The notes beneath the pieces were generated by a model, which searched no databases, had not been told where the DNA came from, and worked only from the letters and a program-made list of their open reading frames with translations. The position numbers and the translations under genes are program-made. DNA of 20,397 bases, taken from IMG/VR virus record IMGVR_UViG_3300021963_000816, positions 1 to 20,397 of that record; one strand, given 5' to 3'. This DNA comes from a virus. This document shows positions 237 through 18,739 of the stretch, piece by piece. How positions within the stretch are numbered: position 1 is the first letter of the stretch; each line of letters opens with the position of its first letter.

Positions 237-1190
237 ATGGCAGTTTCAGCAACCAATAGTTATACCGGTAAAGGTATAGCGGAGTCATTCGAAGATATTA
301 TCTTTGATATTTCTCCAGAAGATACACCATTATTATCAATGGCAAAGCGCATGACCGCCGGCCAGACCTATCACCAATGGCAGACAGACGCCTTGCAAGC
401 AGCAGGCACAAATGCTAACGTTGAAGGTGACGACGCTTCATTCGCAACATTAGCAGCAACAACAGTATTAGGTAACTATACTCAAATTTCACGCAAAACA
501 GTTCAAATTTCTAACACATACGACGTAGTACGTAAATACGGCCGTAAGTCTGAAGTTGCTTACCAACTTATGAAAGCTGGTAAAGAAATGAAACGTGACA
601 TGGAGTATGCTCTAGTACGTAACCAAGCTTCTTCAGCAGGTGGCGCAGCAACAGCTCGTACATCAGCAGGTATTGAGTCTTGGATCACTAACCGAGTAAT
701 TGCTACAGGTTCTACAGCAGGTACAACACCTGGCTTCTCAAATGGTACAGTTGCATCACCAACAGATGGTACTTCAGTAACATTTATCGAAGCAGACTTG
801 AAGTCAGCTTTACAATTAGCTTGGACAGACGGTGGCGAGCCATCAACAATTCTTATGTCAGCAACTAACAAAGCTCGTTTCTCAGGCTTTGCAGGTATTG
901 CTACTAAGTTTGTAGACGTACAAGTTAAAACACAAGCTACAATTACTGGCGCTGCAGACGTTTACGTTTCAGACTTCGGTAACCACACAGTTAAACTTGA
1001 CCGTTTCATGAGAGATCAAGCTGTTCTCTGTATTGATCCTGGTTATGTTGGCTTAGCTTCACTACGTCCATTAAGCAAAGAAGAACTTGCTAAGACTGGT
1101 GACTCAACAAAATGGTTACTCACAGCAGAATACGCATTAGTGGTTCAAAACCCAGATGCACATGCTAAAGTACAAAACGTTGGTGCTTAG
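237..1190 (+). CDS. Major capsid protein, SU10-like (DUF5309 family)
   Basis: This 317-residue protein builds the icosahedral head. The N-terminus (SFEDIIFDISPEDTPLLS, about residues 17-34), the central TTVLGNYTQISRKTVQISNT stretch (75-94) and the helix after it (KSEVAYQLMKAGKEMKRDME) are characteristic of the SU10/DUF5309 major head protein family, which has the HK97 fold. The length of about 320 residues fits. The ATG at 237 follows AAAGGA at a usable distance and begins right after the scaffold-like gene. Codon use leans to C-ending synonyms (AAC, TAC, GAC, TTC) more than in neighbouring genes, as expected for the most highly expressed phage gene. A strong intrinsic terminator follows. No internal Ig-like or protease domain is visible. 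Confidence 0.94.
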   Translation: MAVSATNSYTGKGIAESFEDIIFDISPEDTPLLSMAKRMTAGQTYHQWQTDALQAAGTNANVEGDDASFATLAATTVLGNYTQISRKTVQISNTYDVVRKYGRKSEVAYQLMKAGKEMKRDMEYALVRNQASSAGGAATARTSAGIESWITNRVIATGSTAGTTPGFSNGTVASPTDGTSVTFIEADLKSALQLAWTDGGEPSTILMSATNKARFSGFAGIATKFVDVQVKTQATITGAADVYVSDFGNHTVKLDRFMRDQAVLCIDPGYVGLASLRPLSKEELAKTGDSTKWLLTAEYALVVQNPDAHAKVQNVGA

Positions 1191-1245: not shown

Positions 1246-1569
1246 ATGCCAATATTATTTGATCAAAATAGCGTAACAGGTGTAAGTCAGTACTTTGACT
1301 ATGATCCAGCTAAAGATACATACTACCTAACTTCTACTCAAGACTTGAGTGGCATGTTAGACAAAATTAAAGAAGCAAGAGATAACCCAGATATTTGGGA
1401 CAAAGGCGTTAAACAAGAATGGGCGCACTTTGCTAGCATTCCTCCAGTAGTGGAAATGCAATTAAAACAAAAAGGGATAGATATATATAACCCTGAACAA
1501 ACAAAAGAGCTTATAAAAGAAATAAACGAAAACTACCCATACTTGAAACTAACTACTAAACGTGGATGA
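1246..1569 (+). CDS. Conserved phage protein downstream of the capsid gene (107 aa)
   Basis: The protein has 107 residues and no membrane segment. It looks like a family of small unnamed phage proteins often found directly after SU10-like capsid genes: an aromatic N-terminus (SQYFDYDPAKDTYYLTSTQD), a central segment with a Trp and SIPPVVEMQLKQKGIDIYN (about 64-82), and a C-terminal NENYPYLKLTT. Its role is not known to me; a head-completion or minor virion role would fit the position. The ATG at 1246 sits immediately after the T-tract of the capsid terminator and has no visible Shine-Dalgarno sequence. Translation may therefore be weak or depend on read-through mRNA. The gene overlaps the next one by 8 bases. 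Confidence 0.75.
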   Translation: MPILFDQNSVTGVSQYFDYDPAKDTYYLTSTQDLSGMLDKIKEARDNPDIWDKGVKQEWAHFASIPPVVEMQLKQKGIDIYNPEQTKELIKEINENYPYLKLTTKRG

Positions 1570-1711
1570 TATTAAACAAGACTGGTCTTTTATAGACAAA
1601 TGGTTTGATGACTACGGTCATACATTAGAGCCTAGAGAAATAGCAAGATGGGCTTACAGTAATGGAACATGGCAACAAGCTATAAAGACAGTACAAGATG
1701 ATAGTTTATAG
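1562..1711 (+). CDS. Small acidic Trp-rich protein (49 aa, GTG start)
   Basis: This short reading frame runs from GTG at 1562 to TAG at 1711. It starts inside the last codons of the upstream gene, and an in-frame stop at 1550-1552 makes this GTG the only likely start. The product (MDDIKQDWSFIDKWFDDYGH...) has ten acidic and five basic residues and four Trp, a composition typical of a real soluble folded protein rather than a chance frame. The alternating aromatic/acidic N-terminus and the REIARWAYSNGTWQQAI helix suggest a compact helical fold. I do not recognise the family. The overlaps on both sides point to translational coupling. Without this gene and the next, positions 1570-1831 would be an unexplained gap in an otherwise packed operon. 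Confidence 0.62.
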   Translation: MDDIKQDWSFIDKWFDDYGHTLEPREIARWAYSNGTWQQAIKTVQDDSL

Positions 1712-1850
1712 CGTTAAAGGTTTATTCAGTAATTTAAAACGTGTTGTTAAGACAAGAGACTCTAACAAGAATAAAAGAGTTTACGATAAAATAAGCAAGC
1801 TACGAAAACCATGGTGGCACTTTAGGAATAGATGGACAGAGACGAATTAA
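1698..1850 (+). CDS. Small highly basic protein (50 aa)
   Basis: The frame runs from ATG at 1698 to TAA at 1850. It overlaps the 49-aa gene by 14 bases and the TPR-glycosyltransferase gene by 19 bases. The product begins MIVYSVKGLFSNLKRVVK and ends with the cluster KPWWHFRNRW. It has fourteen Lys/Arg against three acidic residues, so net charge is about +11. Such proteins can bind nucleic acid or a membrane surface, but no family is recognised and no function is claimed. No clear Shine-Dalgarno sequence precedes it, so coupling to the upstream gene is the likely mode of translation. The composition and lack of alternative genes in this stretch favour reality; the double overlap is the main doubt. 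Confidence 0.5.
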   Translation: MIVYSVKGLFSNLKRVVKTRDSNKNKRVYDKISKLRKPWWHFRNRWTETN

Positions 1851-3160
1851 AGAACGTACAGTTAGCTATACATGACCTTATCACTAAGGAAAAGTATGAC
1901 TTGGCTATGCCACTTATTAATGAAGTGTTAATGATCTATCCGAATGATGCAGCGACATTAAACTTTGCTGGATACATTTGGTTAATGGGTGATAAACCTG
2001 CATTTGCATACCAGTACTTTCGTAGAGCATTACAAGAACAACCAGGTAACAAAGCATTATGGACTTCTCTAGGCCGTGCATGTCACGAAATGGATAACTT
2101 TGATGATGCTATTAAATACTTCTTAAAGTCAGCAGAATTAGACCCTAACTATGCTATGGCATACTCTAATGCTTCAGCATCATTAGTTCAAATGTCACGT
2201 TGGGAAGATGCAGAGAAAGCAGCTAAGATGGCTTTAGAATGTGACCCTAAAGAGATACACGCACAATTAAACCTAGCTCATAGTTACTTAGCTAAAGGAC
2301 AATGGGTAGAAGGCTGGAAAGAATGGGATAAGTCACTAGGTGGCAAGTTCCGTAAAGAATTAGTTTATGGTGATGAACCAAGATGGGACGGTTCTAAAGA
2401 CAAAACTATCGTTATCTATGGCGAACAAGGTTTAGGTGATGAGATATTCTATGCTTCATGTATTCCTGACGCTATTGCTATTAGCAAGAAAGTTTACATA
2501 GACTGTGATGAAAGACTAGAAACATTATTTAAACGCAGTTTTCCTAAAGCAGAAGTGCATGGCACTCGTAAACAAGACAATGTGGAGTGGTTAGATGGAC
2601 TTACTTTTGATGCAAGGTGTGGAATTGGTGGCCTACCCCAGTTTTTCAGAACAAACAGCAAGGCTTTTCCTGGGACTCCTTTTCTAGTACCTGATAGTGA
2701 GAAGGTAGACATGTGGAAGCACATGTTTAAGTCATGGAATAAAACAGTAATTGGTATCACAACTAAAGGCGGTACATTTAGAACTAACTCTAAAGGCCGT
2801 GAACTTACAGAAGAAGACTTACAACCACTATTAAAGCGTAAAGATATACAGTTAGTAAGCCTAGACTATAGCGTAGAACGCAAAATTGATGGCGTTAGAT
2901 ACTTTGAATTTGCAACAGACGCAAAAGACTATGACGAAACAGCATCTATTATAGCTGCATGTGATATGGTTTTAGGGGTAAACACTACAGCATTGCATTG
3001 TAGTGCTGCTATGGGCGTTAAAACATGGTGCTTAGTACCTAAATATCACCAATGGAGATACGGACAAGCAAGTATGCCATGGTATCGTTCTATGAGACTT
3101 ATCTACCAAGACGATAAAACATGGTCTGAAGTAGTAGAAAACGTAGCAAGTCAGTTATGA
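1832..3160 (+). CDS. TPR-repeat protein with C-terminal GT9-like glycosyltransferase domain
   Basis: The protein has 442 residues in two parts. Residues about 10-165 form four or so TPR helical pairs (for example the segments ending PNDAATLNFAGYIWLMGD, PGNKALWTSLGRACHEMDN and DPNYAMAYSNASASLVQM). Residues about 190-440 look like the GT-B fold of heptosyltransferase/GT9-type enzymes: GEQGLGDEIFYASCIPD (197-213) is the nucleotide-sugar side loop seen in TPR-GT fusions, and VNTTALHCSAAMGVKTWC (383-400) with HQWRYG (406-411) is the C-terminal sugar-donor motif. TPR plus GT-B is also the layout of protein O-GlcNAc transferases, so a protein acceptor is plausible, but donor and acceptor are unknown. 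The start has AGGA 6 bases upstream. The stop overlaps the methyltransferase start (ATGA). Codons in 2581-2745 are unusually rich in GAG, AAG, CAG, CCC and GGG. Confidence 0.82.
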   Translation: MDRDELKNVQLAIHDLITKEKYDLAMPLINEVLMIYPNDAATLNFAGYIWLMGDKPAFAYQYFRRALQEQPGNKALWTSLGRACHEMDNFDDAIKYFLKSAELDPNYAMAYSNASASLVQMSRWEDAEKAAKMALECDPKEIHAQLNLAHSYLAKGQWVEGWKEWDKSLGGKFRKELVYGDEPRWDGSKDKTIVIYGEQGLGDEIFYASCIPDAIAISKKVYIDCDERLETLFKRSFPKAEVHGTRKQDNVEWLDGLTFDARCGIGGLPQFFRTNSKAFPGTPFLVPDSEKVDMWKHMFKSWNKTVIGITTKGGTFRTNSKGRELTEEDLQPLLKRKDIQLVSLDYSVERKIDGVRYFEFATDAKDYDETASIIAACDMVLGVNTTALHCSAAMGVKTWCLVPKYHQWRYGQASMPWYRSMRLIYQDDKTWSEVVENVASQL

Positions 3161-3756
3161 AATTAGCAGGTAACACCTATTTACCAGATAGTGACCAATT
3201 CTTTGTAAACTATTTTAAATTAGGTGATGTATTTGAACGAAAGTCACTAGATATTGCAATAGAACATGTAAAGAAATGGGATGTTGCAGTAGATGGTGGC
3301 GCACATGTAGGTAGTTGGTCTAGGTTTCTGTGTGATAAATTCAATTTAGTCGCATCTTTTGAACCTAACCCTGATAACTTTGAATGTTTAGTAGCAAATA
3401 CTAAAAACAAAAACAATATTATATTGTCTAAGTTTGGTCTGTACGACTCTCATCAAGAATTTGCACTAGAAAGTGGTAATAACACAGGTTGTTGGCATTT
3501 ATCTGAAGGTAAAGGTATAAAAGTTATGCCTATGCCTGACTTCGGTGCATTAGACTTCTTAAAACTAGACGTAGAAGGTTTTGAACACAATGCTATTACA
3601 GGCATGCTAGACCAAATTAAACGTTATAGACCTGTTATTGTGATAGAAGAAAAGAACCTACCACATAAATTATTAAAATACGAAGCAAGACATATCTTAG
3701 AAAGCATAGGATATAAACAAGTAGGTCAAGCACACAAGGATATTATCTTTGCTTAA
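3157..3756 (+). CDS. FkbM-type SAM-dependent methyltransferase
   Basis: This 199-residue protein is predicted to transfer a methyl group from S-adenosylmethionine, most often to a sugar hydroxyl in this family. Motif I is AVDGGAHVGSWS (44-55), the acidic ribose-binding loop is FEPNPDN (68-74) and the family signature is FLKLDVEGFEHNAI (134-147), followed by RPVIVIEE. Together these are typical of FkbM enzymes. Length is near the minimum for the fold, with a short N-terminal region. Translation probably couples to the TPR-glycosyltransferase through the ATGA overlap, since no ribosome site precedes the ATG. Between two glycosyltransferases, O-methylation of a glycan is the simplest role. The acceptor is not visible from sequence. 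Confidence 0.85.
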   Translation: MKLAGNTYLPDSDQFFVNYFKLGDVFERKSLDIAIEHVKKWDVAVDGGAHVGSWSRFLCDKFNLVASFEPNPDNFECLVANTKNKNNIILSKFGLYDSHQEFALESGNNTGCWHLSEGKGIKVMPMPDFGALDFLKLDVEGFEHNAITGMLDQIKRYRPVIVIEEKNLPHKLLKYEARHILESIGYKQVGQAHKDIIFA

Positions 3757-4369
3757 CATTACTTTTCTACATGTAGGTAAAGATGCAACATTGCCTACTA
3801 AAATGGTAGCTTCTGTAAAAGAAGTTATGCCAAATGCAAATATCGTTCAACTTACAGATGAAAATACACCTATTATTAAGGGTGTAAATACAGTTATTCG
3901 TAAAAAATATAACGGTCTTATCATGTTATTTAGACTAGAACACCTAGCTTCACTCAGAGGCAATTGGATAACACTAGATACTGACATGATAATTAAAAAA
4001 GACTTATCTCATGTATTTGACCAAGACTTTGACGTAGCACTTACAAGACGTTATGGTGTCATCATGGATACGCATGGGAATGATTTAGTAAAGATCATGC
4101 CATATAACGCAGGTGTTATGTTTTCTAAGAACCATGAGTTTTGGAAAGACGCATTAGAAGCATTAAAGACATTTAAACAAGAAGCACATGAGTGGTATGG
4201 TGACCAATTAGCCATTAAATTCATATCAGATAAAAACCAATATAAAGTATTAGAACTTCCTTGTGATGAGTATAACTATACTCCAAAGGATAGAGAAGAA
4301 CGTAAAGATGTATATGTTTATCATTTCAAAGGTCCTCGTAAAGACTGGATGATAGACGGTAATTATTAA
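3749..4369 (+). CDS. GT-A glycosyltransferase with DXD motif
   Basis: The product has 206 residues. WITLDTDMIIKKDLSHVF (73-90) carries the DXD motif Asp77-Thr-Asp79, which binds the metal and the nucleotide-sugar phosphates. PYNAGVMFSKNHEFW (118-132), EWYGDQLAIKF (148-158) and VYHFKGPRK (190-198) match the acceptor-side and C-terminal His motifs of GT8/GT32-like enzymes. The TTG start at 3749 is preferred because AAGGA lies 8 bases before it and the sequence starts a beta strand (LNITFLHVG) at once; the next ATG would remove the first strand. It overlaps the methyltransferase by 8 bases. It is likely a cytoplasmic partner of the two preceding enzymes. Donor sugar and acceptor cannot be assigned. 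Confidence 0.83.
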   Translation: MLNITFLHVGKDATLPTKMVASVKEVMPNANIVQLTDENTPIIKGVNTVIRKKYNGLIMLFRLEHLASLRGNWITLDTDMIIKKDLSHVFDQDFDVALTRRYGVIMDTHGNDLVKIMPYNAGVMFSKNHEFWKDALEALKTFKQEAHEWYGDQLAIKFISDKNQYKVLELPCDEYNYTPKDREERKDVYVYHFKGPRKDWMIDGNY

Positions 4370-4378
4370 AGGATAACT

Positions 4379-4993
4379 ATGGCTTTTACCAACTATACTA
4401 GTTTTGTTACAGTAGTAGAAAACTATTTAGCAAGAACAGACTTAAGCTCACAAATACCTGACTTCATTCAATTAGCACAAACAAGAATGTCACGTGACTT
4501 AAGAACTGAAAAGATGCTAAAAGTAGCTACTGCACCTATAACTGCAGGTGATGGAACTGTAGCAGTACCTTCAGATATGTTAGAGGTTAGAGAAATACAT
4601 ATACAAGGTAACCCTGTAGTTCGTGTAGCTTATCAAAGTCCAGACTTATTCTTTAAAGACGGTCTTACAACTACTTCAGGTATATCTGTATTTTTTACAA
4701 TGTTAGGCTCTGAATTTCAGTTTGCTCCTGTTCCAAATGGTTCACAAACTGTTCAAATTCTATACTATGCTCAACCTACATTTATATCAACAACAACAGC
4801 TAGTAACTTATATCTAGCTAATTACCCAGACGCTTTATTATACGCAACTCTAGCAGAGGCAGAGCCATACTTGATGAATGATGGTCGTATTCAAACATGG
4901 TCAGCTTTATACGATAGAGCAATTGCTAACATTAAGACAAGCGACTTGGGCCAAACATACCCATATACTTCATTAAACGTAACACCACGATAA
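4379..4993 (+). CDS. Head-tail adaptor protein (SU10/T7 gp11-like)
   Basis: This 204-residue protein should form the ring that joins the portal to the tail nozzle, as gp11 does in T7. The N-terminal helical part (LARTDLSSQIPDFIQLAQTR, about 18-37, then MSRDLRTEKML) is the hallmark of SU10-type adaptors: a helix bundle that starts with an LARxDL-P-FI-LA pattern. The middle is beta-rich (VAVPSDMLEVREIHI; FQFAPVP) and the end is helical (LLYATLAEAEPYL...WSALYDRAIANI). Length agrees with the family. AAAGGA precedes the ATG. In T7-like phages the nozzle gene comes next, but here about 5.3 kb of appendage genes lies between. Confidence 0.87.
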   Translation: MAFTNYTSFVTVVENYLARTDLSSQIPDFIQLAQTRMSRDLRTEKMLKVATAPITAGDGTVAVPSDMLEVREIHIQGNPVVRVAYQSPDLFFKDGLTTTSGISVFFTMLGSEFQFAPVPNGSQTVQILYYAQPTFISTTTASNLYLANYPDALLYATLAEAEPYLMNDGRIQTWSALYDRAIANIKTSDLGQTYPYTSLNVTPR

Positions 4994-5003
4994 GGAAAAC
5001 AAA

Positions 5004-5390
5004 ATGGCAGAAATTTCAAACTACTTAGAAAATGCAATTATCAATGCAACTCTAAGAAACACAACATATACATCACCAGCAACTGTGTATGTATCATTAT
5101 GGACTTCAGATCCTACAGATGCAGGTAGTGGTACAGAAGTATCAGGTGGATCATACGCTAGAACAGCAGTTACATTTGGCGCACCTTCTAATGGCGTGTC
5201 AACAAATAGTGCAGCAGTAGAGTTCCCACAAGCCACAGCTTCATGGGGAAGTATTGGCTGGATAGGTATTAATGATGCTTCTACATCTGGTAACTTACTT
5301 TACCATACAGCATTAGATACAGCAAAAACTATTGGCTCAGGTGACATATTTAAAATTGCTACAAGCAATTTATCTGTAACATTAGCTTAA
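5004..5390 (+). CDS. Virion structural protein, Gp80-like tail/fibre-associated family
   Basis: The product has 128 residues. It starts with a short helix (SNYLENAIINATLRNTTY) that often begins this phage family. It continues with PATVYVSLWTSDPTDAGSGT, GGSYARTAVTF, a SWGSIGWIGINDA segment and a final SGDIFKIATSNLSVTL. These are the typical blocks of a small all-beta virion protein annotated as tail fibre or Gp80-like in many phages (family name from memory, not searched). It probably sits on the virion surface or tail; its exact place is not known. The ATG has AAGGAAAA upstream and follows the adaptor gene by 10 bases. Confidence 0.68.
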   Translation: MAEISNYLENAIINATLRNTTYTSPATVYVSLWTSDPTDAGSGTEVSGGSYARTAVTFGAPSNGVSTNSAAVEFPQATASWGSIGWIGINDASTSGNLLYHTALDTAKTIGSGDIFKIATSNLSVTLA

Positions 5391-5398
5391 GGTAAATT

Positions 5399-6616
5399 AT
5401 GCCAGTACCAATGACGCTAGAAGAGCTAGACGTTTATGGTAGCTTGGAAAATGTACCATATAGTTTAGATAACACGTTTTATAATAATGGCACTACAATA
5501 TGTGGTCCATGGACGCTAGATCAATTAGACTATTTTGGAAGTTTAGATAACTTACCATTCTCACTAGATGATCCAGTATGGACAACTGGTGCATGTTTTA
5601 ATTTAGCTACCGGTGCAATATCAGGTGATGCTACAGTAGCTACAAATGCTATTAGAGTTAGAACAGATAGTGGTGCTATAATAGGTAATGCAAGCGTTAC
5701 TGCAGATGGTATTAAAATATTAGTAGGCGAAGGAAGTATTACTGGTAATGCGACAGTAACTTCAGACGCAATACGTATAAGAACAGATAGTGGCTCTATT
5801 AATGGTACTGCTACTGTAACAGCAGATGGCATAAGAGTATTAACAGGTAATGCAAGTATCACAGGTGACGCTACTGTGACTTCAGATGCTATACGCATTA
5901 GAACTGATAGTGGTTCTATTACAGGAAATGCGACTGTTACTGCTAACGCTGCAATAGTATTAACAGGTAGCGCAAGTATTACAGGTAATGCAGACTTAGA
6001 GGCCAATGTTACAAGAATTACATTTGACTCTGCAAGCATACTAGGTGAAGCTACAGTCACAGCTAACGGTGCTAAAGTTGTATCATCTAGTGGCGCTATT
6101 ACCGGATATGCTTTATTAACAGGCATAGGTAATGCTATCTATGAAAGCTCAGGTAGTATTACAGGTAACGCTACAGTCACAGCAAATGGTGTTCGTATCC
6201 AATTAGGTGACGCATCTATTACAGGTAGTGCAACTGTCACAGCAGATGGTTTAAGAATTAGAACATCTACAGCAGATATTACAGGCAATGCCACAGTATC
6301 AGCCGTAGGTGGTGTAGAGTATTCAGGCAATGCAAGTATATTAGGAACAGCACTTCTTACTTGTTCTCCTAACGCTATTTTATATGGCGTAGGTAGTGTT
6401 ACAGGCAATGCAAATATAATTGCTAATGGCATCATACAAGGTAAAAACTGGAATCCTATTACACCTGGATCAGAGTCATGGAATGTTGTAACACCAAGTA
6501 GTGATACTTGGACAGAAATAACAGCAGGTGCAAGTTCATGGACTGATATATCTCCAGGATCAGATACATGGACAGCAACAAGTTCAAGTAGTAATACGTG
6601 GTATCAACAAATTTAA
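5399..6616 (+). CDS. Repeat-built appendage protein (20-residue solenoid plus Trp repeats)
   Basis: This 405-residue protein is made almost wholly of repeats. Residues 6-64 hold two copies of an LDxYGSLxNxPxSLD module, 33 residues apart. Residues 72-351 are fourteen exact-length 20-residue repeats of the type (G/A)SITGNATVTADGIRIRTD. Residues 351-405 are five 10-residue repeats that each start with Trp (W351, 361, 371, 381, 391, then W401) and end YQQI. There is no signal peptide, coiled coil or catalytic motif. The even spacing with alternating beta-type residues suggests a beta-solenoid shaft or stacked beta layers, that is, a tail fibre or decoration protein. The start follows AAGG. Neighbours are other virion surface proteins. 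Function is inferred from context. Confidence 0.8.
   Translation: MPVPMTLEELDVYGSLENVPYSLDNTFYNNGTTICGPWTLDQLDYFGSLDNLPFSLDDPVWTTGACFNLATGAISGDATVATNAIRVRTDSGAIIGNASVTADGIKILVGEGSITGNATVTSDAIRIRTDSGSINGTATVTADGIRVLTGNASITGDATVTSDAIRIRTDSGSITGNATVTANAAIVLTGSASITGNADLEANVTRITFDSASILGEATVTANGAKVVSSSGAITGYALLTGIGNAIYESSGSITGNATVTANGVRIQLGDASITGSATVTADGLRIRTSTADITGNATVSAVGGVEYSGNASILGTALLTCSPNAILYGVGSVTGNANIIANGIIQGKNWNPITPGSESWNVVTPSSDTWTEITAGASSWTDISPGSDTWTATSSSSNTWYQQI
5414..5590 (+). repeat. Two copies of an LDxYGSL-type protein module
   Basis: Copy 1 lies at 5414-5491 (TLEELDVYGSLENVPYSLDN) and copy 2 at 5513-5590 (TLDQLDYFGSLDNLPFSLDD). They are 99 bases apart start to start. A third copy of the same module occurs in the nozzle gene at 11262-11339. 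The copies share protein sequence better than DNA sequence. Confidence 0.85.
5612..6451 (+). repeat. Fourteen tandem 60-bp coding repeats
   Basis: Fourteen units of exactly 60 bases, with no insertion or deletion of a codon, encode 20-residue repeats. Strongly conserved positions are the first Gly/Ala, Ile at 3, Gly at 5, Asn/Asp at 6, Ala at 7 and Ala near 11. Units 3 and 5 are nearly alike (both end TSDAIRIRTDS), which suggests that units were copied in pairs. DNA is much more diverged than protein. Confidence 0.9.
6449..6598 (+). repeat. Five tandem 30-bp coding repeats with Trp every ten residues
   Basis: Units WNPITPGSES, WNVVTPSSDT, WTEITAGASS, WTDISPGSDT and WTATSSSSNT follow each other with no change in length. 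The first Trp is also the last residue of the preceding 20-residue repeat array. A sixth Trp starts the last five residues. Confidence 0.9.
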
Positions 6617-6625
6617 GGAACAATT

Positions 6626-7348
6626 ATGGCAAAAGATAAGATCAGTCAGTACGCATCCACAAGTGCTGGCGCAAATTTAAATACAGACATTGCAGGTATT
6701 AATATTGATGAGGGCTGCGCACCTTCTAATATTAACAATGCTATTAGAACACTAATGGCTCAAATTCGTGACTTGCAGTCAGCAGCAAGTGGAGACTCTA
6801 TACCTATCGGTGCAGGTGGTACAGGTTCTACTACAGCATCTTCAGCAAGAGCAGCTTTAGGTCTTGCTATTGGTACAGACATTCCAAGCTATACATCTAC
6901 AAACACATTTACACCTAAACAAATTTTTACAGGTACATCTAGTGTTATTTCATCTAAATTTACAAACGCTTTAGAATTAGTCACAGTATCAGCTACAGCA
7001 GCTACAGGTACTATCAATTATGATGTGACTACACAGTCTGTGTTATACTATACAAGCAATGCAAGTGCAAACTGGACTGTAAACTTTAGAGGTTCTAGTG
7101 GTACATCTTTAGATACAGCTATGGCTACAGGCGAAGCTATTACAGTCGTCTTTTTAGTGACACAAGGCTCTACAGCTTATTACAATAATGCAGTTCAAAT
7201 TGACGGATCATCAGTTACACCTAAATATCAAGGTGGCACAGCATGGACTTCAGGTAACGCTTCAGGAATAGATGCTTACTCTTATACTATCGTTAAGACA
7301 GGTTCAGCAACATTCACAGTATTTGCAGCTCAAACACAATTCAAATAG
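6626..7348 (+). CDS. Tail fibre protein with cyanophage-type C-terminal domain
   Basis: The product has 240 residues. The start, DKISQYASTSAGANLNTDIA then GINIDEGCAPSNINNAIR (24-41), is the common N-terminal element of phage fibres that attaches to the virion and trimerises. IGAGGTGSTTASSARAALGL (61-80) is the Gly-Gly-Thr-Gly repeat of fibre shafts. Residues about 118-240 (TGTINYDVTTQSVLYYTSN ... VQIDGSSVTPKYQGGTAW ... TFTVFAAQTQF) form a beta-rich domain that I know from many cyanophage and other marine phage fibres. There it probably forms the distal part of the trimer. AAGGA lies before the ATG. It is followed closely by the glycine-rich adhesin, so the two may belong to one fibre. Confidence 0.8.
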   Translation: MAKDKISQYASTSAGANLNTDIAGINIDEGCAPSNINNAIRTLMAQIRDLQSAASGDSIPIGAGGTGSTTASSARAALGLAIGTDIPSYTSTNTFTPKQIFTGTSSVISSKFTNALELVTVSATAATGTINYDVTTQSVLYYTSNASANWTVNFRGSSGTSLDTAMATGEAITVVFLVTQGSTAYYNNAVQIDGSSVTPKYQGGTAWTSGNASGIDAYSYTIVKTGSATFTVFAAQTQFK

Positions 7349-7357
7349 GAATTAACA

Positions 7358-9871
7358 ATGTCATTATTGTCAAGACTAGCTATACAAGCCGCAAGAGCTT
7401 ATGGCGTTCTATCATCTCGTAGCACTAATGTAGCAGCAGACTATCTTGTTGTAGCTGGTGGTGGAGCTGGAGGCTTCTCTCAAGGCGGTGGCGGTGGTGC
7501 TGGTGGGTTACTTACCTCTACTGCAACATTATCTACTCTTACTACATATACAGTGACTGTAGGTGCTGGCGGTGCTGGCAATTCAACTGCTGATACTCCT
7601 GGTGGCAATGGAACAAACTCTGTTTTGTCAGGCACAGGTCTAACTACAATAACTTCAGTAGGTGGAGGCGGTGGCGGTGGTGGTAATAGAGCTGGTTTAA
7701 CAAGTGCAACCGTAGGTTCAAATGGTGGTTCAGGCGGTGGTGGCTCTGGAGTTTATAGTACCACTAAAGCTGGAGGAACAGGCACATCTGGTCAAGGTAA
7801 TGCTGGCGGCACAGGCGGTGAAGATGTAGCAAGTTCTGGTCCAGAACTAGGCGGCGGTGGCGGTGGATCTTCTGCTGTTGGTGGTAATTTTTCTACTGCT
7901 GGTTCAGGGTCTGCTGGTAATGGCGGAGCAGGTACAGCATCTTCTATTAGCGGTTCTTCTGTTACATACGCTGGCGGTGGTGGAGGAGGTATTAGGTCGG
8001 ATGCTACTAGTGTAGGTAGTGGTGGAGCTGGTGGCGGTGGTGCTGGTGCCACAGGAACATCTGCTGGAACTGCTGGAACTGCTAACACAGGTGGTGGTGG
8101 AGGTGGTGGCGGTGGTCAATTTGGAGGTGGCGGTGGTGCTGGTGGTGCTGGTGGTTCAGGCGTAGTCATCATATCTTACACATCTGCTACACCTAAATTC
8201 ACAGGTGGCACAGTTACTACTTCAGGTGGTAAACAAATTCATACATTCACAGCTTCAGGATACCTAGTCCCTGCTACAGCAGTTACAGCTAGTTATTTAG
8301 TAGTGGCTGGGGGTGGTGCTGGTGGTTATGTTACAGGTAATAATAGAGCAGCTGGAGGTGGTGGTGCAGGCGGTTATCAAACATCATCAATAACACTTTA
8401 CTATCCAGCTACATACACAGTTACTGTAGGCGCTGGAGGATCATCTACAACATCTAGCAACACTAATGGTTCTAATTCTGTTTTATCAGGAACAGGTATT
8501 ACAACTATCACCTCAACAGGAGGTGGATCTGGTGGATCTACTTTCCCAGATAAAAATGCAGCAAATGGTGGCTCTGGTGGTGGCGGTGGTTCAGGAACTG
8601 CTAATACAGGAGGCACAGGCACTTCAGGTCAAGGTAACAATGGCGGAAATGGTAGTGGTAATTTTAGTGGTGGCGGAGGTGGAGCTAGTGCGACAGGAAG
8701 TAATGCAAGCGGATCTGCTTCAGGAGCAGGCGGAGCAGGAACTGCATCATCTATAAGTGGTTCTAGCGTTACTTACGCAGGTGGTGGTGGAGGCGGTCAA
8801 TATAATGGATCAGTTGTAGGTGCAGGAGGTTCAGGTGGTGGCGGTGCAGGAACAGGATCAGCAACAGGCACAGCAGGAACAGCCAACACAGGTGGTGGCG
8901 GTGGTGGAACAGGACCATCTGGAACAGCAGATGTTTCTTTTGCAGGTGGAGCAGGCGGCTCTGGAATAGTTATCATCTCATACGCTGGATCACAACAATT
9001 TACAGGTGGGACTGTAACATCATCAGGTGGAAACACAATACATACATTTACTTCTAGTGGAAGTTTAACTGGTGCTTATTCTGTAGACTATTTAGTAGTT
9101 GCAGGTGGTGGAGGTGGTGCTGGTGCTGCAAATGGTGGTGGAGCTGGTGGCGCTGGTGGTTATCAAACTTCTTCTGTTTATATTAATTCAGGAAATACTT
9201 ATACAGTAACTGTTGGTAGTGGTGGAACAGGTGGGTCATCAGGAACTAATGGATCAGACTCAGTTTTATCAGGCACAGGAATTACAACAGTAACATCAGT
9301 TGGTGGCGGTAGAGCAAATAATAATGCAAACGGTAGTTTAGGAGGCTCAGGTGGTGGTGCTTCTTCTACTAACGGAACTACTTATACTGGTGGTGCAGGA
9401 ACTAGTGGACAAGGTAATGCTGGTGGAAATTCAGTATCAACAACTCCATTTGCTACAGGCGGTGGTGGTGGAGCTTCTGCAGTAGGTGCTAATGGAAGTG
9501 GCTCTCAGTCTGGTGCTGGTGGTAATGGATCTTCTTCATCTATTACTGGTAGCTCAGTAACATACGCTGGTGGTGGCGGTGGCGGTGCGACATCTCAAGG
9601 TTCAGCTAGAGGTACAGGTGGCACAGGCGGTGGTGGTGATGGAGGAACTAGTGGAAATAGTGGAGCAGCTGGTACTGTTAATTTAGGTGGCGGTGGTGGT
9701 GGAGGTAGTAATTCAAGTGGTCAAACTGGTGGTAATGGTGGTTCTGGTGTGGTAATATTATCTGTTCCTACTACTAAATATACAGGAATTACAACTGGTA
9801 GCCCAACTGTAACAACATCTGGAGCTAATACTATATTAAAATATACTGCCTCTGGCACTTACGTAGCTTAA
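7358..9871 (+). CDS. Glycine-rich tail adhesin with three domain repeats
   Basis: This 837-residue protein starts with an amphipathic segment (SLLSRLAIQAARAYGVLSSR) that may fix it to the virion. It then has three repeated glycine-rich domains beginning at about residues 28, 312 and 577, each with (D/S)YLVVAGGG. Each unit has TYTVTVG(A/S)GG, SVLSGTG(I/L)TT(I/V)TS, GTSGQGN(A/N)GG, GSSVTYAGGGGGG and a closing GG-VVIIS or similar strand. Linkers such as GGTVTTSGGKQIHTFTASGY separate the units. Runs of up to nine Gly fit a polyglycine-II type bundle, as known for the adhesin gp38 of phage S16. It most likely binds the host receptor with the loops between the Gly runs. There is no enzyme motif. 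The start has TAGGAA upstream. Confidence 0.8.
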   Translation: MSLLSRLAIQAARAYGVLSSRSTNVAADYLVVAGGGAGGFSQGGGGGAGGLLTSTATLSTLTTYTVTVGAGGAGNSTADTPGGNGTNSVLSGTGLTTITSVGGGGGGGGNRAGLTSATVGSNGGSGGGGSGVYSTTKAGGTGTSGQGNAGGTGGEDVASSGPELGGGGGGSSAVGGNFSTAGSGSAGNGGAGTASSISGSSVTYAGGGGGGIRSDATSVGSGGAGGGGAGATGTSAGTAGTANTGGGGGGGGGQFGGGGGAGGAGGSGVVIISYTSATPKFTGGTVTTSGGKQIHTFTASGYLVPATAVTASYLVVAGGGAGGYVTGNNRAAGGGGAGGYQTSSITLYYPATYTVTVGAGGSSTTSSNTNGSNSVLSGTGITTITSTGGGSGGSTFPDKNAANGGSGGGGGSGTANTGGTGTSGQGNNGGNGSGNFSGGGGGASATGSNASGSASGAGGAGTASSISGSSVTYAGGGGGGQYNGSVVGAGGSGGGGAGTGSATGTAGTANTGGGGGGTGPSGTADVSFAGGAGGSGIVIISYAGSQQFTGGTVTSSGGNTIHTFTSSGSLTGAYSVDYLVVAGGGGGAGAANGGGAGGAGGYQTSSVYINSGNTYTVTVGSGGTGGSSGTNGSDSVLSGTGITTVTSVGGGRANNNANGSLGGSGGGASSTNGTTYTGGAGTSGQGNAGGNSVSTTPFATGGGGGASAVGANGSGSQSGAGGNGSSSSITGSSVTYAGGGGGGATSQGSARGTGGTGGGGDGGTSGNSGAAGTVNLGGGGGGGSNSSGQTGGNGGSGVVILSVPTTKYTGITTGSPTVTTSGANTILKYTASGTYVA
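7439..9868 (+). repeat. Three tandem ~0.8-kb adhesin repeats
   Basis: Repeat starts are at 7439, 8291 and 9086. The peptide GSSVTYAGGGGGG occurs in each (7952-7990, 8759-8797 and 9548-9586) with different codons: its two Ser codons are TCT-TCT, TCT-AGC and AGC-TCA. Copies are 260-285 residues, with most length change in the Gly-rich loops. Confidence 0.85.
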
Positions 9872-18050: not shown

Positions 18051-18380
18051 ATGAAACAATTTCTAATGGCAATTACTTTAGTGTTGCTATGGTTGTTTTT
18101 ATATGACTATGCAGATGGAAAAGAATTGCCAAAGGAAATGTCAATGGCTACTGAAGCTGGTGAAGTAGTATTAACACTAGAAGAATGTACGTTTACTAAA
18201 ATGGGTTTACGTGGCTATCCTTATGCTGCGTATGCTACAGATAAAGGTAAACCTAACCATGAAGGTTGCTGGAAAAAAGAAGAAGTTAATCACATGGAGT
18301 CAGTATTAATTTACTTTCCAGAGATAGATGCTACAGCAGTATATAACCCACAACTATTTAAACCCCGTTCAACTATATGA
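18051..18380 (+). CDS. Secreted or membrane-anchored phage protein (109 aa)
   Basis: The N-terminus (MKQFLMAITLVLLWLFLYDY) is a signal peptide or membrane anchor: two charged-side residues, a hydrophobic core at 4-18 and a possible cut after ADG. The remaining part has two Cys (EECTFTK and EGCWKKEE) that could form a disulfide in the periplasm, with YPYAAYATDKGKPNHEGCW (about 57-75) conserved in similar proteins of other phages that I recall. The function is not known. The AGGAAAATGAA before the ATG supplies a ribosome site. Its place among lysis genes suggests a role at the envelope, such as a spanin partner or superinfection factor, but no lipobox is present. Confidence 0.62.
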   Translation: MKQFLMAITLVLLWLFLYDYADGKELPKEMSMATEAGEVVLTLEECTFTKMGLRGYPYAAYATDKGKPNHEGCWKKEEVNHMESVLIYFPEIDATAVYNPQLFKPRSTI

Positions 18381-18739
18381 CACATTGGATAAATGAGAAC
18401 AGCATTGCTGCTCTATACTCTGCACTTATAGAAATGAGTATATTTGATGAGTATAAACTTCCTCCAGCAAGTAAAGTTGACTTTGTTATTGTTAATGATA
18501 ATAGCATTTGTGGGCAATATGAGCCGCCTGAAGCTGGTGAACCTCATGTTATTACTATAAGTGTTGCAAGACATTCACATCTTTATCCTGTACTAATAAC
18601 ATTATGTCATGAAATAATACACATGATATGCTATTTAGAAGCACCTAAAACAGAAAAATATACGAGCCATAAAGGTTTATTCTTAAAACTACAGAAACAA
18701 GTAGCTAAGATGTATGGCTTTGACCCTAAAGAACTATAA
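18377..18739 (+). CDS. SprT-like zinc metalloprotein (HExxH)
   Basis: The product has 120 residues. The zinc motif HEIIH is at 78-82 within ITLCHEIIHMICYLEA. A third ligand can be the His at 98 in SHKGLFLKLQ, as in SprT/Spartan-like domains. The strand FVIVNDNSICGQYEP (36-50) and VITISVARH (58-66) complete the small mini-gluzincin pattern. The C-terminus is KMYGFDPKEL, short and without the Cys4 zinc ribbon of SprT. No signal peptide is present, so it acts in the cytoplasm unless carried by others. The start overlaps the previous stop (ATGA). Whether it is a protease for virion or host proteins, or has some lysis role, is not clear. Confidence 0.72.
   Translation: MTHWINENSIAALYSALIEMSIFDEYKLPPASKVDFVIVNDNSICGQYEPPEAGEPHVITISVARHSHLYPVLITLCHEIIHMICYLEAPKTEKYTSHKGLFLKLQKQVAKMYGFDPKEL

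What the first reader, a model, noticed from the sequence alone, without database searches (positions are those of the whole stretch)
1832..4369. TPR-glycosyltransferase / FkbM methyltransferase / DXD glycosyltransferase cassette inside the virion operon
Three sugar-acting enzymes overlap each other and lie between the capsid and the adaptor genes, where T7-like phages have no such enzymes. The TPR plus GT-B layout is that of protein-modifying O-GlcNAc transferases, and the phage encodes several Ser/Thr/Asn/Gly-rich surface proteins (5399-9871) that could be acceptors. The inference is a virion glycosylation and O-methylation system, for example to mask the particle or alter adsorption. The alternative is modification of host surface sugars to block superinfection. 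The close overlap argues for one pathway.
Basis: partly seen in the sequence, partly recalled or inferred. Interest (0 to 1): 0.68.

Follow-up and report, generated by a model that had tools for sequence, protein, structure and literature searches.

The report
Phage virion sugar-coating cassette, swappable
A freshwater virus of bacteria carries, between its shell and tail genes, an enzyme that probably attaches a sugar to its own shell proteins, followed by finishing enzymes (here a methyl- and a sugar-transferase) that close relatives have replaced with other sets, so that each strain may wear a different sugar coat.

Summary
In detail: three overlapping genes at 1832-4369 encode a TPR + GT-B glycosyltransferase, an FkbM methyltransferase and a DXD (GT8-like) glycosyltransferase, between the capsid and adaptor genes. 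The phage is SU10/LUZ24-type, not T7-like. The three are not one fixed unit. The TPR enzyme is core: present in 69 of 69 relatives found through the capsid and in 34 of 34 found through the adaptor. The genes behind it are exchanged: SAM methyltransferase; GT9-like + GT-B-like pair; all three; or FkbM + DXD, as here. A phage otherwise 97-99% identical to the window carries the other pair. The partner set changes at least 13 times on the TPR-enzyme tree and 20 on the adaptor tree. The genes are under purifying selection (omega 0.05-0.24). Unrelated phages carry the same families inside virion operons. More distant bacterial relatives of the TPR enzyme lie beside flagellin genes (12 of 78 loci), and the architecture is that of FlmG, whose TPR binds flagellin for cytoplasmic O-glycosylation. 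Best reading: the TPR enzyme primes a virion protein, and swappable enzymes extend or methylate the sugar, much as in mycobacteriophage Corndog. Acceptor, donor sugar and any glycan are unproven. A new variant of a known kind.

The parts
237..1190 (+). SU10-type major capsid protein; candidate acceptor
   Evidence: PF17236 E 8e-93; relatives 91-98% identical
1246..1569 (+). 107-aa head protein (gp5), conserved, candidate acceptor; its counterpart lies directly before the adaptor in phages without the cassette (Venkman)
   Evidence: PHROG 3982
1562..1850 (+). two small overlapping ORFs (1562-1711, GTG, 49 aa; 1698-1850, ATG, 50 aa), absent from several relatives; upstream edge of the exchanged module
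   Evidence: read directly; no intergenic DNA here in L095, L103, L005
1832..3160 (+). TPR + GT-B glycosyltransferase; core enzyme of the locus; proposed protein-priming transferase (TPR about 1-167, GT-B about 186-442)
   Evidence: present in 69/69 and 34/34 relatives
3157..3756 (+). FkbM-family SAM methyltransferase; variable tailoring gene
   Evidence: PF05050, TIGR01444
3749..4369 (+). DXD glycosyltransferase, GT8-like; variable tailoring gene, TTG start
   Evidence: invariant DxD and H192; HFKGxRKDW C-terminus; best PDB profile hit WbbM E 0.047, weak
4379..4993 (+). SU10-type adaptor (head-tail); downstream flank of the module (identity returns at 4365-4368)
   Evidence: PF24175 E 8e-34
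5004..5390 (+). GP4 gp80-like fibre/head protein; conserved, candidate acceptor
   Evidence: PF23140 E 2e-48

Best explanation
The locus is a phage-encoded virion-glycosylation module built as one fixed priming enzyme plus interchangeable tailoring enzymes. The soluble TPR-GT is made with the late virion proteins, recognises one of them through its TPR superhelix (as FlmG recognises flagellin) and transfers a first sugar from a host nucleotide sugar to Ser/Thr. In this phage the GT8-like DXD enzyme adds a further sugar and the FkbM enzyme caps it with a methyl group. In relatives a different methyltransferase and/or a GT9-like + GT-B-like pair does this step, so near-identical phages would display different glycans. 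Shown: gene identities, position, universality of the TPR-GT, frequent exchange of the partners, purifying selection, no predicted membrane segment. Inferred: acceptor, linkage, donor sugars, reaction order and biological benefit (altered adsorption or masking of the particle).
For: TPR-GT in 69/69 and 34/34 unbiased relatives, always between capsid/gp5 and adaptor. Partner sets in 109 distinct loci: SAM-MT 45; GT9-like + GT-B-like 34; FkbM + DXD 13 (window included); MT + pair 10; minor forms 7. L084 vs window: upstream 99.4% and downstream 97.4% identical, but TPR-GT 90.5% and the FkbM-DXD pair replaced; breakpoints in the 1461-1831 spacer and at 4365. Cassette type changes 13 times on the TPR-GT tree and 20 on the adaptor tree (about 44 when shuffled). 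dS within one genome pair: adaptor 1.4-1.6, FkbM 0.35, i.e. module transfer. Independent cases in virion operons: MW202512 (capsid, TPR-GT 32%, HNH, SAM-MT, GT8, adaptor), L357 (TPR-GT, other MT-like ORF, DXD 56%, adaptor), Tetraselmis virus S20 (capsid region to head-closure), CcrBL9 (after tail genes), L362 (HK97 capsid). Bacterial TPR-GT relatives: flagellin within 10 kb in 12/78 loci against about 0.5 expected from 24 flagellin hits in about 82 Mb; L299 has flagellin, TPR-GT, TPR-GT41 and the same SAM-MT family at 51%. FlmG: TPR binds flagellin, GT-B C-terminus, cytoplasmic O-glycosylation (PMC7591256). Fold: SPY/OGT top hits, E 8e-12. Precedent: Corndog O-MT + 3 GTs between portal and protease (PMC4351075), reported to modify capsid and tail tube (PMC11600133).
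Against: No glycan, acceptor or activity is shown. Flagellin neighbours belong to the more distant bacterial relatives (about 25-29%); the closest (32-36%) lacked one nearby and sit in other clusters, some with further TPR proteins and transferases. The GT domain resembles GT9, whose classical members act on LPS. PDB TM-scores are low (0.34-0.39) because domain arrangement and TPR length differ. No virion gene obviously co-varies with cassette type. In pelagiphage Mosig related enzymes lie near nucleotide-metabolism genes, not virion genes.
Confidence: 0.66

Rival explanations
1. The enzymes alter host surface sugars (LPS or capsule) late in infection so that superinfecting phages or released progeny do not bind debris.
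For: GT9-like enzymes classically build LPS; FkbM and GT8 enzymes are common in surface-polysaccharide clusters (general knowledge); polysaccharide modification is the reading offered for jumbo-phage GT clusters (PMC7824862).
Against: No predicted membrane segment in the three proteins (max 19-residue hydropathy 1.38) and no flippase or lipid-carrier transferase in the cassettes seen. Embedded between capsid and adaptor genes in unrelated phages. The TPR enzyme is invariably kept, and its architecture is that of protein transferases.
Confidence: 0.15
2. The TPR enzyme glycosylates a host surface protein (flagellin or pilin), changing motility or blocking a protein receptor.
For: Some bacterial homologues sit beside flagellin genes; FlmG modifies flagellin (PMC7591256).
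Against: Position and universality with virion genes; a late lytic gene has little time to change assembled flagella; the host is unknown and many freshwater planktonic bacteria lack flagella.
Confidence: 0.08
3. The glycosyltransferases hypermodify phage DNA.
For: Phage GTs can glycosylate modified bases (reference 46 cited in PMC12619734); some relatives have a thymidylate-synthase-like gene that could be a base hydroxymethylase.
Against: That gene is found in only 3 of 12 long relatives, all 12 of which have the TPR enzyme. The cassette lies in the virion operon, and a TPR protein-binding domain is unexpected for DNA.
Confidence: 0.05
4. A drifting accessory island at a recombination hotspot, neutral to the virion (including small-molecule or polysaccharide pathways unrelated to the particle).
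For: The capsid-adaptor interval receives unrelated cargo in other SU10/LUZ24-type phages: a GT in MW202711 and MW202496, a GDSL hydrolase in phiM5, nothing in Venkman. Homing endonucleases sit in it (L116, L238).
Against: TPR-GT retained in every relative with this interval covered, omega 0.13-0.17; partners 0.05-0.24.
Confidence: 0.06

Closest known systems
Mycobacteriophage Corndog (cluster O) gp35-gp38 virion glycosylation/methylation genes
   Same: O-methyltransferase plus glycosyltransferases placed inside the virion operon; reported to modify capsid and tail-tube proteins (PMC4351075, PMC11600133)
   Different: No TPR priming enzyme reported there; different phage morphotype and host; no sequence match to the window's DXD enzyme in the phage collection; partner swapping of this kind not reported in the papers read
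FlmG, flagellin O-glycosyltransferase of Caulobacter crescentus
   Same: N-terminal TPR + C-terminal GT-B domain, soluble; acceptor read by the TPR (PMC7591256)
   Different: FlmG is 596 aa and uses pseudaminic acid on flagellin; the phage enzyme is 442 aa with unknown donor and acceptor; sequences not compared directly
OGT / SPINDLY (GT41)
   Same: TPR superhelix followed by GT-B; top fold matches, E 8e-12
   Different: GT41 profile PF13844 not matched; about 12% identity; motifs GEQGLGDE and VNTTALHC are GT9-like
Methyltransferase/GT clusters of Caulobacter phages (CcrBL9, CcrColossus) and Tetraselmis viridis virus S20
   Same: Homologous SAM-MT, GT9-like and FkbM enzymes next to tail or head genes
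   Different: Longer clusters with sialyltransferase-like and GT-D enzymes; no TPR-GT found by sequence; function not studied in the sources read

Membership tests
SU10/LUZ24-type short-tailed phage | SU10-type capsid, adaptor and gp80-like protein in order | tested here: met
   PF17236, PF24175, PF23140 above cut-offs; same order in Venkman
   capsid and adaptor match SU10 families instead
Phage virion glycosylation locus (Corndog type) | glycosyltransferases plus methyltransferase inside the virion operon | tested here: met
Phage virion glycosylation locus (Corndog type) | homology to Corndog/Che8 transferases | tested here: inconclusive
   no match of the DXD enzyme in 50,697 phage records; Corndog accessions tried were not held
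Phage virion glycosylation locus (Corndog type) | glycan on capsid or tail protein | not testable with these tools
   needs mass spectrometry of virions
GT41 (OGT/SPY) | GT41 catalytic domain PF13844 | tested here: not met
   no hit in the protein or the contig
GT41 (OGT/SPY) | TPR + GT-B fold | tested here: met
   model pLDDT 89.3; SPY/OGT top hits, TM 0.34-0.39
FlmG-like TPR protein O-glycosyltransferase | N-terminal TPR, C-terminal GT-B, no membrane segment | tested here: met
FlmG-like TPR protein O-glycosyltransferase | homologues linked to the acceptor gene (flagellin) | tested here: met
   12 of 78 bacterial loci, mainly the more distant ones
FlmG-like TPR protein O-glycosyltransferase | sequence homology to FlmG itself; TPR binds the acceptor | not tested
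   FlmG sequence not at hand; binding needs an experiment
FkbM methyltransferase | PF05050 / TIGR01444 above cut-off, SAM motif and DVEGFE motif | tested here: met
GT8 (GT-A) | DxD and C-terminal HxxGxxKxW; PF01501 | tested here: inconclusive
   motifs present and DxD invariant, but no Pfam hit and a useless model (pLDDT 48); the positional counterpart in L238 is PF01501
Gtr-type O-antigen modification cluster | membrane flippase and lipid-linked glucosyltransferase | tested here: not met
   no predicted membrane segment in the three proteins; no such gene among the cassette types seen

The most novel reading that the evidence does not exclude
An abundant freshwater phage lineage practises 'serotype switching' of its own particles: an invariant TPR-guided protein glycosyltransferase primes a head protein, and tailoring cassettes are exchanged by recombination at fixed joints, so that otherwise near-identical virions display different, methyl-capped glycans.
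Probability: 0.35. Interest if true: 0.8.

Novelty: new variant of a known kind. Interest (0 to 1): 0.6.

Why it matters
Glycosylated phage particles have been shown mainly in mycobacteriophages. A fixed TPR-guided priming enzyme with swappable finishing enzymes, conserved across freshwater phages, would make virion glycosylation a general and fast-evolving phage trait. It would give a natural set of near-isogenic phages that differ only in glycan genes, and a compact, soluble protein-glycosylation toolkit. It also gives a concrete hypothesis for many 'auxiliary' glycosyltransferase and FkbM genes annotated in aquatic phages.

Tried and rejected
T7-like placement: rejected, capsid and adaptor are SU10-type. 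GT41 membership of the TPR enzyme: rejected by profile. Three-gene unit: rejected, partners are swapped. Structure of the DXD enzyme: model unusable (pLDDT 48.5), so no fold claim. PDB sequence relatives of the GT domain: none. Looking for a fibre or head gene that co-varies with cassette type: fibres are mosaic in every type, no signal. A Ser/Thr-rich capsid loop as a mark of acceptors: capsids without the enzyme (Venkman) have a comparable loop, so uninformative. DNA modification: thymidylate-synthase-like gene in 3/12 relatives only. Direct comparison with Corndog proteins: record not held. A first alignment call failed through wrong coordinates. The annotated 'FkbM' of MW202512 proved to be the other SAM-MT family.

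Full report
OBSERVATION. The window is a complete 20,397-bp IMG/VR contig. Three ORFs at 1832-3160, 3157-3756 and 3749-4369 overlap by 4 and 8 nt and are followed 9 nt later by the adaptor gene. The first has TPRs (Pfam) and, in an AlphaFold2 model of mean pLDDT 89.3, ten N-terminal helices and a GT-B domain. The second is an FkbM methyltransferase (PF05050 E 5e-14; TIGR01444). The third has no family hit, but DxD is invariant in all 12 homologues and its C-terminus reads HFKGxRKDW, resembling the GT8 signature; its model was too poor to use and the best PDB profile hit, WbbM, is weak (E 0.047). The flanks are an SU10 capsid (PF17236), a 107-aa protein, an SU10 adaptor (PF24175) and a GP4 gp80-like protein. 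The phage is therefore of the SU10/LUZ24 type, not T7-like. The nearest isolate by adaptor is Methylophilales phage Venkman (50%). The host of the window phage is not known.

THE LOCUS IN RELATIVES. Scans of IMG/VR with the capsid, the adaptor and each enzyme gave some 230 loci. Among loci found through the capsid alone, 69 of 69 with at least 1.5 kb downstream have the TPR-GT; among loci found through the adaptor alone, 34 of 34 with at least 2.5 kb upstream have it. The genes that follow differ. In 109 sequence-distinct loci (the window included) the counts are: a SAM methyltransferase (C1, about 170 aa) 45; a GT9-like protein (C3, PF01075) plus a GT-B-like protein (C2) 34; FkbM + DXD 13; C1-C3-C2 10; and 7 minor or broken forms, including DXD without FkbM (L097). 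FkbM and C1 never occur together. In Venkman, MW202481 and MW202879 the interval holds no enzyme; in MW202711 and MW202496 it holds one other GT; in phiM5 a GDSL hydrolase. The interval is thus a recurrent insertion site, and the TPR-GT is fixed in this lineage.

EXCHANGE. L084 matches the window at 99.4% over 1-1460 and 97.4% from 4365 on, but its TPR-GT is only 90.5% identical and C3-C2 stands in place of FkbM-DXD. Breakpoints thus lie in the spacer before the TPR-GT (or near its start) and just before the adaptor. On a tree of 97 adaptors the cassette type changes at least 20 times, and on the TPR-GT tree 13 times (about 44 when shuffled). For the window and L042, dS is 1.38 for the adaptor, 0.64 for TPR-GT, 0.48 for DXD and 0.35 for FkbM: different histories for neighbouring genes. 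All stay under purifying selection (omega 0.05-0.24). Homing endonucleases lie within the locus in L116 and L238, a possible vehicle (inference).

SAME FAMILIES ELSEWHERE. MW202512, whose TPR-GT is 32% identical, has capsid, two ORFs, TPR-GT, HNH, SAM-MT (C1 family, 41%, although annotated FkbM), GT8 and SU10 adaptor. L357 has TPR-GT, a further methyltransferase-like ORF, DXD (56%), adaptor. Tetraselmis virus S20 has C1 and FkbM homologues with GTs between its capsid region and head-closure genes. Caulobacter phage CcrBL9 has C1 and C3 homologues right after the tail genes. L362, a siphophage, has a DXD homologue among head-tail genes with an HK97 capsid. Several unrelated virion operons thus hold these enzymes; pelagiphage Mosig, where they lie near nucleotide genes, is an exception.

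MECHANISM. The fold of the TPR-GT is nearest to SPY and OGT (E 8e-12; TM 0.34-0.39) and, among viral proteins, to a TPR protein of cyanophage S-SRM01 (TM 0.74) and GT9-annotated phage proteins. By sequence it is not GT41 (PF13844 absent). Bacterial homologues are 25-36% identical; 12 of 78 loci carry flagellin within 10 kb against about 0.5 expected from the density in 20 related genomes. These are mainly the more distant homologues, and the expectation is rough. L299 combines flagellin, this TPR-GT, a TPR-GT41 and the C1 methyltransferase at 51%. FlmG has the same layout, and its TPR binds flagellin for cytoplasmic O-glycosylation (PMC7591256). No membrane segment is predicted in any of the three. 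I infer that the TPR-GT primes a conserved virion protein (capsid, gp5, adaptor or gp80-like) and that the exchangeable enzymes extend and methylate the sugar. The closest working precedent is mycobacteriophage Corndog, with an O-methyltransferase and three GTs between portal and protease (PMC4351075) that are reported to modify capsid and tail tube (PMC11600133 and PMC12363180, citing Freeman et al. 2023; the primary paper was not held).

RIVALS AND LIMITS. Host-surface modification is the main rival. It is weakened by soluble enzymes, by the absence of flippases in the cassettes, and by virion-operon placement in unrelated phages, but it is not excluded. DNA modification is unlikely: a base-modification candidate is in 3 of 12 relatives while all 12 have the TPR-GT. 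No experiment shows a glycan, the acceptor is unknown, and no virion gene co-varies clearly with cassette type. Two literature searches found no description of this TPR-GT/FkbM locus in phages in the open-access library, judged from the listed titles and abstracts; subscription papers are mostly not held.

Noticed in passing
L116:3505-4104; L238:8019-8495: Homing-endonuclease-like genes (NUMOD3/GIY-YIG-like; annotated endonuclease) sit within the cassette interval, possibly helping module exchange.
   Followed up: partly
L238:8495-9025 (MW202512): Annotated 'fkbm family methyltransferase' is in fact a member of the other SAM-methyltransferase family (41% to L003 C1).
   Followed up: yes
L182 / L020: TPR-GT shortened to 432 aa and the GT9-like gene reduced to a 52-aa remnant: apparent deletion joining TPR-GT to the C2 gene.
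   Followed up: no
L299 (alphaproteobacterial MAG): Flagellin, TPR-GT, TPR-GT41 and C1-type methyltransferase side by side: looks like a bacterial flagellin glycosylation/methylation cluster.
   Followed up: partly
L365 (Sinorhizobium phage phiM5) 1873-3183: A GDSL/SGNH hydrolase occupies the same capsid-adaptor site and is annotated as detected in particles.
   Followed up: no
L348:11787-12554: Divergent thymidylate-synthase-like gene next to a dCMP deaminase gene in some relatives; could be a base hydroxymethylase.
   Followed up: partly
window 18377-18739: ORF with an HExxH metalloprotease-like motif (CHEIIHM).
   Followed up: no
window 7358-9871: Glycine-rich fibre of three repeated domains (PF21722) with a high GC content (about 0.49 against 0.33-0.40 around it).
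   Followed up: no
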